This document shows positions 33,884 through 35,938 of a stretch of DNA of 64,000 nucleotides, piece by piece. Under the pieces are notes generated by a model that saw only the letters and a program-made list of their open reading frames with translations, was not told the DNA's origin and searched no databases. Position numbers and translations under genes: made by a program. The stretch's first letter is position 1, and each line of letters starts with the position of its first letter. This DNA is from Bifidobacterium catenulatum DSM 16992 = JCM 1194 = LMG 11043 (lineage in GTDB: Bacteria > Actinomycetota > Actinomycetes > Actinomycetales > Bifidobacteriaceae), in assembly GCF_001025195.1 (NCBI RefSeq), contig NZ_AP012325.1, forward strand, positions 310,001 to 374,000, given 5' to 3'.

Positions 33884-34650
<767 letters not shown>

Positions 34651-34663
<13 letters not shown>

Positions 34664-34689
34664 TCGGCAAAGCCGATTCGCCAAAGCGT
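34651..34689. terminator. Hairpin overlapping the pstB stop codon
   Basis: ACGCTTTGGC pairs with GCCAAAGCGT, and inside it ATCGGC pairs with GCCGAT around AAA. There is no T run, so it may act in message processing rather than termination. Confidence 0.6.
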
Positions 34690-34838
34690 AGCGTCGGTCC
34701 AGGGCGACGCCGTTAAGCAAACAGTCCAGTGGACTGTTTGTAGGCGGCGCCGAGATGCGACAGTATCGAGGCAGGAAATAGTGCCTTGCCTTGGCAAGGC
34801 TCCTTTTCCTGCGAGCTTGCACGCGGCTGATCGGCAAA
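34658..34838 (+). repeat. 14-bp direct repeats bounding a hairpin-rich segment
   Basis: GGCTGATCGGCAAA occurs at 34658-34671 and 34825-34838. Between them lie a dyad of CAAACAGTCCA and TGGACTGTTTG (separated by 1 bp) within a longer GGCGACGCC/GGCGGCGCC pairing, and a second dyad, GCCTTGCC-TT-GGCAAGGC, enclosed by GCAGGAAA/TTTCCTGC-type arms. Confidence 0.8.
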
Positions 34839-34847
34839 TCATCTCTT

Positions 34848-34955
34848 ACTCCCGCTTACGGGGGATTGTCGCACGAATGTGTGGTCGAAAGTGGTTGTTT
34901 CGCTAACCATTTCGATCTCATTCGTGGCGGCCGTTCCCCTGGGCGGGAGTTTTTT
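34848..34955 (+). ncRNA. Candidate structured RNA ending in an intrinsic terminator
   Basis: Nested pairings build one long hairpin: ACTCCCGC (34848-34855) with GCGGGAGT (34943-34950), CGGGGGA with TCCCCTG, CGCACGAATG with CATTCGTGGCG (one bulge), and TCGAAAGTGGTT with AACCATTTCGA (one bulge). The loop is GTTTCGCT. Six T follow directly. This could be a stand-alone small RNA, an elaborate terminator, or a leader element. I do not recognise an Rfam family, and no promoter is evident immediately upstream. Confidence 0.5.
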
Positions 34956-34985: not shown

Positions 34986-35014
34986 TTGATAATGATTCTC
35001 AATTAGGTTATGAT
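34986..35014 (+). promoter_or_regulatory. Promoter with Fur-family (Fur/Zur/Mur) box
   Basis: TTGATA (34986-34991), a 17-bp spacer and TATGAT (35009-35014) form a good promoter. TTGATAATGATTCTCAA (34986-35002) is an inverted repeat of Fur-family type covering the -35 and spacer, so metal-bound repressor would block it. Confidence 0.8.
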
Positions 35015-35044: not shown

Positions 35045-35938
35045 ATGCACCGTATTGCGAGAATTGCGATTGCTGCACTTGCTTCTGTAGGAATGCTTGC
35101 GTCGGTTGCTGCGTGTGGAAGCGGCCAATCAACATCCGAAAAAAACGGAACCATCGAAGTGGCCGCTTCCGTGAATCAGTGGGGTACCGTGGCGAAAGCC
35201 CTGGGCGGCGACAACGTCAACGTAACCAGCATCATCAATTCCACCAATGTGGATGCGCATGATTACGAGCCGACAACGTCGGATATCGCTAAACTGCAGA
35301 AAGCGCAGGTCATCATCGTCAATGGAGCCGGCTACGACGCATGGGCGGTCAAAGCGGCGCAAACCGCCAACGCAATTATCGTCAACGCCGCTGAAATCGG
35401 CGGGGTGAACGACGGTGAGAATCCGCATGTCTGGTTCTCCGCCGATGTGCGCAAGGCGGTGGCACAGGCGATCACCGAAGCGTACGAACAGGCCGACGCC
35501 GCGAAAAAGAACGATTTCGACAAGATGAACGACCGATGGACGGCTGAAGAAAACAACGTCGAAAGCGAAATCGCCGAAGTGAAACAGAAAACGGATGGAT
35601 TGGCATACGCCGCAACGGAATCCGTGGCAAGCTATCTGGCGGAAGACATGGGTCTGGCTGACGCAACGCCAAGCGGGTACGCGCGAGCCACCGCGAACGA
35701 AAGCGAGCCGACGCCAACGGATATCAAGCAGTTCACCGATGCGCTGAAGGCGGGCGAAATCAAACTGTTGGTGGTCAACACGCAAGAGGAAAGCGAGCTG
35801 ACAGGCAAAATCACGGACGCTGCGAAATCCGTGGAAGTGCCCATGGTCGAACTGACCGAGCAAATGCCGGAACAATACGATTCCCTGACGGCGTGGATGG
35901 AAGGTCTTGTTGACGCCTTTTCGCAAGCCATTGCGTAA
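35045..35938 (+). CDS. Metal ABC transporter substrate-binding lipoprotein (ZnuA/PsaA family), orphan
   Basis: The 297-residue protein has a lipoprotein signal ending ASVAAC (lipid Cys24) and the cluster A-I metal-binding fold. Ligand positions read His72 (DAHDYEP), His128 (NPHVWF) and Glu192 (ATESVASYLAEDMGL) in place of the third His. The His-His-Glu pattern is typical of Mn/Fe-binding members such as PsaA, so manganese may fit better than zinc; this is inference. No His-rich loop is present. No permease or ATPase gene is adjacent. It is controlled by the Fur-family box at 34986. Confidence 0.88.
   Translation: MHRIARIAIAALASVGMLASVAACGSGQSTSEKNGTIEVAASVNQWGTVAKALGGDNVNVTSIINSTNVDAHDYEPTTSDIAKLQKAQVIIVNGAGYDAWAVKAAQTANAIIVNAAEIGGVNDGENPHVWFSADVRKAVAQAITEAYEQADAAKKNDFDKMNDRWTAEENNVESEIAEVKQKTDGLAYAATESVASYLAEDMGLADATPSGYARATANESEPTPTDIKQFTDALKAGEIKLLVVNTQEESELTGKITDAAKSVEVPMVELTEQMPEQYDSLTAWMEGLVDAFSQAIA

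What the first reader, a model, noticed from the sequence alone, without database searches (positions are those of the whole stretch)
34848..34955. Candidate small structured RNA with multi-stem hairpin
Four nested stems, two with single bulges, and a direct T run form a 108-nt structure far larger than the other terminators here. It lies between the Pst operon and a Fur-family-controlled gene and could be a phosphate- or metal-linked sRNA, or the processed 3' end of the pst message.
Basis: seen in the sequence. Interest (0 to 1): 0.6.

Follow-up and report, generated by a model that had tools for sequence, protein, structure and literature searches.

The report
Giant pst terminator from palindromic repeat
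The 108-base hairpin is real and unusually stable; it most likely is the transcription stop signal at the end of the phosphate-uptake operon, built from an old copy of a scattered palindromic DNA repeat found across bifidobacteria, rather than a separate regulatory RNA.

Summary
Window 34848-34955 folds into one unbranched 44-bp hairpin (-64 kcal/mol, z -9) with a T6 end, the strongest hairpin-plus-T-run in 464 kb of this Bifidobacterium genome. Five genomes keep it at the same pstB-znuA junction; 9 of 11 stem changes keep pairing, but none is doubly compensatory. The sRNA reading is not supported: no promoter match lies between pstB and the hairpin. Three relatives have different, shorter hairpins in the same slot, so the conserved role is probably ending the pst message before the Fur/Zur-box promoter of znuA. 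Unexpectedly, the hairpin belongs by sequence to a multicopy palindromic doublet (REPIN-like) repeat of Bifidobacteriaceae, found in 34 of 112 Bifidobacterium species and in one other genus. A model of the repeat built without this clade picks exactly 34848-34950 as the only match in the genome (E 8e-4); a pair-shuffled control model finds no copy. Elsewhere the repeat sits at gene 3' ends, mostly without a T run. Best reading: one ancestral repeat copy, single in this clade, now serves as the pst terminator. Termination and repeat mobility were not tested.

The parts
34848..34950 (+). 44-bp hairpin; diverged copy of a REPIN-like palindromic doublet repeat (left arm 34848-34897, loop 34898-34903, right arm 34904-34950)
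   Evidence: fold; orthologues; repeat homology
34950..34955 (+). T6 tract directly at the end of the stem (first T pairs with A34848)
   Evidence: sequence; T5-T6 kept in all five genomes; missing from most other repeat copies
33884..34663 (+). pstB, last gene of the pst operon
   Evidence: ABC_tran; one clear orthologue in nearly every genome of the genus
34652..34688 (+). short perfect palindrome across the pstB stop codon, no T run
   Evidence: sequence; near-identical in relatives
34986..35014 (+). promoter-like site of znuA; overlaps Fur/Zur-type box TGATAATGATTCTCA (34987-35001)
   Evidence: the box is kept in G001, G027 and G051 as TGAGAATCATTCTCA
35045..35938 (+). znuA-like metal-binding lipoprotein gene, the neighbour shielded by the terminator
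   Evidence: PF01297; synteny

Best explanation
The feature is the intrinsic (Rho-independent) terminator and 3' end of the pst phosphate-uptake operon. When RNA polymerase has passed pstB and the intergenic repeats, the nascent RNA folds into a 44-bp hairpin with U6 at its end, which releases the transcript. This leaves a very stable rod at the 3' end of the pst mRNA and keeps pst transcription out of the separately controlled znuA-like gene. The hairpin derives from one copy of a dispersed palindromic doublet (REPIN-like) repeat of Bifidobacteriaceae, present before the catenulatum/pseudocatenulatum group split; it has drifted, kept its pairing and carries a T tract. Shown by computation: the fold, its conserved position, homology to the repeat, other hairpins in the same slot in relatives. 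Inferred: termination itself, 3'-end stabilisation, insulation, and the order of events.
For: Fold and T6; outlier among hairpins of the genome; five genomes keep stem and T tract; 9 of 11 stem changes keep pairs; relatives have another hairpin in the slot before the same box and gene. Repeat origin: R1 finds multicopy hairpins; arms alike beyond pair-preserving shuffles; shuffled model R2 finds none; reciprocal model R3 finds exactly 34848-34950 as sole match in the own genome. Repeat copies sit at gene 3' ends, 0 of 26 between divergent ORFs against 20% background.
Against: No RNA data. Pair-preservation P only 0.06 and no double compensatory change among orthologues. The R3 score of the locus is modest (37 bits, E 8e-4). 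G027 and G051 hairpins in the slot lack a clear T run. The T6 is partly used by the stem.
Confidence: 0.7

Rival explanations
1. An independent, or processed and functional, small RNA of about 100-110 nt that regulates phosphate or metal genes.
For: Strong isolated structure with a terminator tail, kept in five genomes; RNA rods can be stable products.
Against: No promoter-like site upstream within the gap; no Rfam match; hardly any single-stranded sequence to pair with targets; the least constrained bases are the unpaired ones; sequence belongs to a dispersed repeat.
Confidence: 0.08
2. A plain fossil repeat without function: the palindrome inserted here, pairs because it is a palindrome, and the T run is chance.
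For: Homology to a dispersed repeat; divergence close to four-fold sites; the region accumulates other repeats.
Against: T5-T6 at the stem end is kept in five genomes but is lacking in nearly all other copies; neighbouring modules turn over while the hairpin stays; relatives have another hairpin in the slot.
Confidence: 0.12
3. An ordinary pst terminator that lengthened on its own; the likeness to the repeat is convergence of CTCCCGC/GCGGGAG stems. G027 and G051 have a GGCTCCCGCAGG...CCTGCGGGAGCC hairpin in the slot.
For: Shared outer stem with G027/G051; the clade has no other copy of the repeat.
Against: Collinear likeness over both whole arms, z 5-8 against pair-preserving shuffles; R2 control and reciprocal R3 search.
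Confidence: 0.15

Closest known systems
Intrinsic (Rho-independent) terminators
   Same: GC-rich hairpin at an operon's 3' end with an adjoining T run
   Different: 44 pairs where simple terminators in the same genome have 16-21; apparently repeat-derived
REPINs / REP dimers (PMC3116915, PMC3733652)
   Same: Two inverted conserved units around a variable spacer, forming one long hairpin; multicopy, intergenic; solo units also occur
   Different: No RAYT/Y1 transposase in most repeat-rich genomes; units of about 45 nt rather than 20-40; no GTAG or CGTC tag was looked for systematically; the window copy is single in its genome
Predicted sRNAs of Bifidobacterium animalis (PMC4338058)
   Same: One predicted sRNA, IGR-136, lies beside a phosphate-binding transport gene
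   Different: It lies between a response regulator and the phosphate-binding protein gene, i.e. another intergenic gap

Membership tests
Intrinsic terminator | Stable hairpin directly followed by a T run on the transcribed strand | tested here: met
Intrinsic terminator | Located at the 3' end of a gene or operon | tested here: met
   185 nt after the pstB stop, before the znuA promoter
Intrinsic terminator | Transcript 3' ends at the T run | not testable with these tools
   needs RNA data
Bifidobacterial palindromic doublet repeat | Sequence homology over both arms beyond hairpin shape | tested here: met
Bifidobacterial palindromic doublet repeat | Multicopy in the same genome | tested here: not met
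   only this locus in G000: a lone descendant, not an active copy
REPIN (RAYT-dependent) | Inverted REP doublet with variable spacer forming a hairpin | tested here: met
   family alignment
REPIN (RAYT-dependent) | Associated REP tyrosine transposase in the genome | tested here: not met
   PF01797 in 7 of 112 genomes, absent from G015 and G043; hence 'REPIN-like' only
Small regulatory RNA | Own promoter or distinct transcript | tested here: inconclusive
   no sigma-70-like match in the gap; RNA data not available
Small regulatory RNA | Compensatory changes among orthologues | tested here: not met
   0 pairs changed on both sides in five genomes

The most novel reading that the evidence does not exclude
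Bifidobacteriaceae carry an undescribed, RAYT-independent REPIN-like repeat that spreads ready-made, often bidirectional 3' ends to genes, and the pst hairpin is a copy domesticated as an operon terminator.
Probability: 0.4. Interest if true: 0.55.

Novelty: new member of a known kind. Interest (0 to 1): 0.36.

Why it matters
It turns a candidate sRNA into a testable case of a repeat becoming a terminator. It also exposes a hairpin repeat in 34 of 112 Bifidobacterium species that has no Rfam entry and that I did not find in the open literature. If the repeat ends transcripts generally, it affects operon maps, RNA-seq reading and the design of genetic constructs in these gut bacteria.

Tried and rejected
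Rfam at gathering and relaxed thresholds: nothing at the hairpin; a sub-threshold sucA hit (29 bits against 40) lies upstream and is treated as chance. BLAST to plasmids: none. The first arm-splitting script used a bad pattern and was replaced. The first alignment had one orthologue on the wrong strand, redone. A RAYT link was tested and rejected. Repeat-bearing species were checked for the repeat at pst: none of those examined has it there. Literature searches for bifidobacterial palindromic repeats, REPINs or a pst sRNA found no description. Pair counts on A4 are fitted to the model, and A4 holds both strands of copies, so the independent alignment A5 is preferred.

Full report
CHECK OF THE OBSERVATION. 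The DNA at 34848-34955 folds as one 44-bp rod with small bulges and a 6-nt loop, -64.0 kcal/mol against -33.1 +/- 3.4 for dinucleotide shuffles. The opposite strand folds less well, and the T6 lies on the + side. Scanning the window and 400 kb of sampled stretches of the same genome for T-run-associated hairpins gave 172 unbranched cases. This one has the lowest energy (-63.9); the strongest simple terminators have 16-21 pairs and about -33 kcal/mol or weaker. The context is a pstB gene (ABC_tran) ending at 34663 and a ZnuA-family gene at 35045, with a promoter-like site at 34986-35014 overlapping a TGATAAT-G-ATTCTCA palindrome.

ORTHOLOGUES. blastn over 112 Bifidobacterium genomes finds the region in five: this one, G019 (contig length equals B. 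catenulatum subsp. kashiwanohense JCM 15439), G060, G040 and G037 (contig length equals Bifidobacterium sp. N4G05). The window genome is of the same species as G019. All five keep the hairpin and a T5-T6 at the pstB-znuA junction. No pair has changed on both sides. Of 11 substitutions in stems 9 keep a standard pair (7.0 expected, P 0.06), and stems vary less than unpaired positions (11/88 v 5/15, Fisher P 0.055). Divergence is close to that of four-fold sites. So selection for pairing is suggested but weak within this clade.

THE TERMINATOR SLOT. G001 (2,089,645 bp, the size of B. adolescentis ATCC 15703 from memory), G027 and G051 keep the order pstB - hairpin - Fur/Zur-type box - znuA but have other, shorter hairpins there; in G001 it is an ACCGACG...CGTCGGT stem with a T-rich tail. 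Across 50 species the first 400 nt after pstB nearly always hold strong hairpins of unrelated sequence. What is conserved is therefore a hairpin 3' end, not this sequence. There is no promoter-like match between pstB and the hairpin; promoters that depart from the sigma-70 consensus would be missed.

AN UNEXPECTED RELATIONSHIP. A covariance model of the five orthologues (R1) was run on 112 genomes. Besides the orthologues it found ~105-125-nt palindromic hairpins, multicopy in G015, G043 and G055 and also in G074 and G097. Their consensus is GCTCCCGCTGGCGGGAGC-TGTCGAACGAAGTGAGACTGAGGGTGGT-variable spacer-ACCACCCTCAGTC...GACA-GCTCCCGCCAGCGGGAGC. BLAST with a copy finds the family in 34 of 112 Bifidobacterium genomes and in 7 genomes of one further genus of the family; solo half-units and near-identical 30-nt cores are common. 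Rfam has no entry for the copies tested.

IS THE LIKENESS MORE THAN HAIRPIN SHAPE? Four results say yes. (i) Summed local similarity of the two arms to 20 repeat arms is 69, against 38 +/- 5 (maximum 58) for 3000 pair-preserving shuffles; for the five-genome consensus it is 77. Because those copies were themselves picked by likeness to the window hairpin, this test alone is biased, so two controls follow. (ii) A control model made from the same alignment with pairs permuted (R2) finds no repeat copy in the same genomes or loci, best genus hit 27 bits, whereas R1 scores copies up to 51 bits. (iii) A reciprocal model (R3) built only from 19 repeat copies of other species finds 34848-34950, with exactly those boundaries and on both strands, as the sole locus at E<=1 in the 2.08-Mb genome (37.4 bits, E 7.9e-4), and the G019, G060 and G040 orthologues too. 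G037's was not reported in the whole-genome search but scores 32.1 bits when its locus is searched. (iv) Nearer relatives G027 and G051 do contain the repeat, one copy lying in the same flanking sequence in both. Across the family 18 of 30 consensus pairs show double changes on an alignment not fitted to the structure.

HOW THE REPEAT BEHAVES ELSEWHERE. For 26 copies, mainly in G015 and G043, flanking ORFs from a crude ORF caller were 10 convergent, 16 tandem and 0 divergent, where 20% divergent is the background in the sampled own genome. Many copies begin within about 20 nt of a stop codon. Only 2 of 23 have at least 5 T in the 8 bases beyond either end, and neither has a clean run. The repeat thus prefers gene 3' ends, and the T6 of the window copy is a local feature. 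The layout resembles REPINs (PMC3116915) and REP dimers (PMC3733652), but Y1 transposases occur in only 7 of 112 genomes and not in G015 or G043. I call it REPIN-like, not a REPIN.

MECHANISM. Most likely pst transcripts end in the T6 after the rod forms, giving a nuclease-resistant 3' end and insulating znuA, whose own metal-responsive promoter follows. Termination, stability and insulation are inferences from anatomy. The origin as a repeat copy is supported by sequence; whether the T tract came with the target site or arose later is unknown.

SURROUNDINGS. Between pstB and the hairpin lies a copy of another dispersed palindromic repeat (core 34701-34746; matches in 59 of 112 genomes), replaced by a different module in G040 and G037. 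Comparing G027 with G051 shows such a module bounded by a ~21-nt direct repeat that is single in G051. The pst 3' region therefore gathers palindromic repeats, yet the hairpin itself is kept.

VERDICT. Observation confirmed; sRNA reading not supported; 3'-end reading supported. A new member of known kinds (intrinsic terminator; REP-like repeat), with the bifidobacterial repeat family the more interesting lead. Literature coverage was limited to open papers, so 'undescribed' is not proven.

Noticed in passing
34701-34746 (element roughly 34689-34840): A second dispersed palindromic repeat, core GTTAAGCAAACAGTCCAGTGGACTGTTTGTAGG, with matches in 59 of 112 Bifidobacterium genomes, often several per genome. 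Not characterised further.
   Followed up: partly
L045 and L044 (pstB downstream in G027 and G051); L041 (G060): A ~115-nt palindromic module after pstB in G027 is bounded by a direct repeat CTGATCGGCAAAGCCAATCTGC that is single in G051, as if inserted there; G060 carries two repeat modules in tandem.
   Followed up: partly
L102-L140 (other species): A 30-nt core GGGAGCTGTCGAACGAAGTGAGACTGAGGG of the REPIN-like repeat recurs almost unchanged in many species and in another genus, while outer stems and the spacer vary.
   Followed up: partly
34987-35001: Fur/Zur-type palindrome at the znuA promoter, perfect (TGAGAAT-C-ATTCTCA) in G001, G027 and G051 but with mismatch in the window (TGATAAT-G-ATTCTCA).
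   Followed up: no
G000:C1:1580335-1580712 (L171), outside the window: One Y1 (IS200-like) transposase in the own genome; only 7 of 112 Bifidobacterium genomes have one.
   Followed up: no
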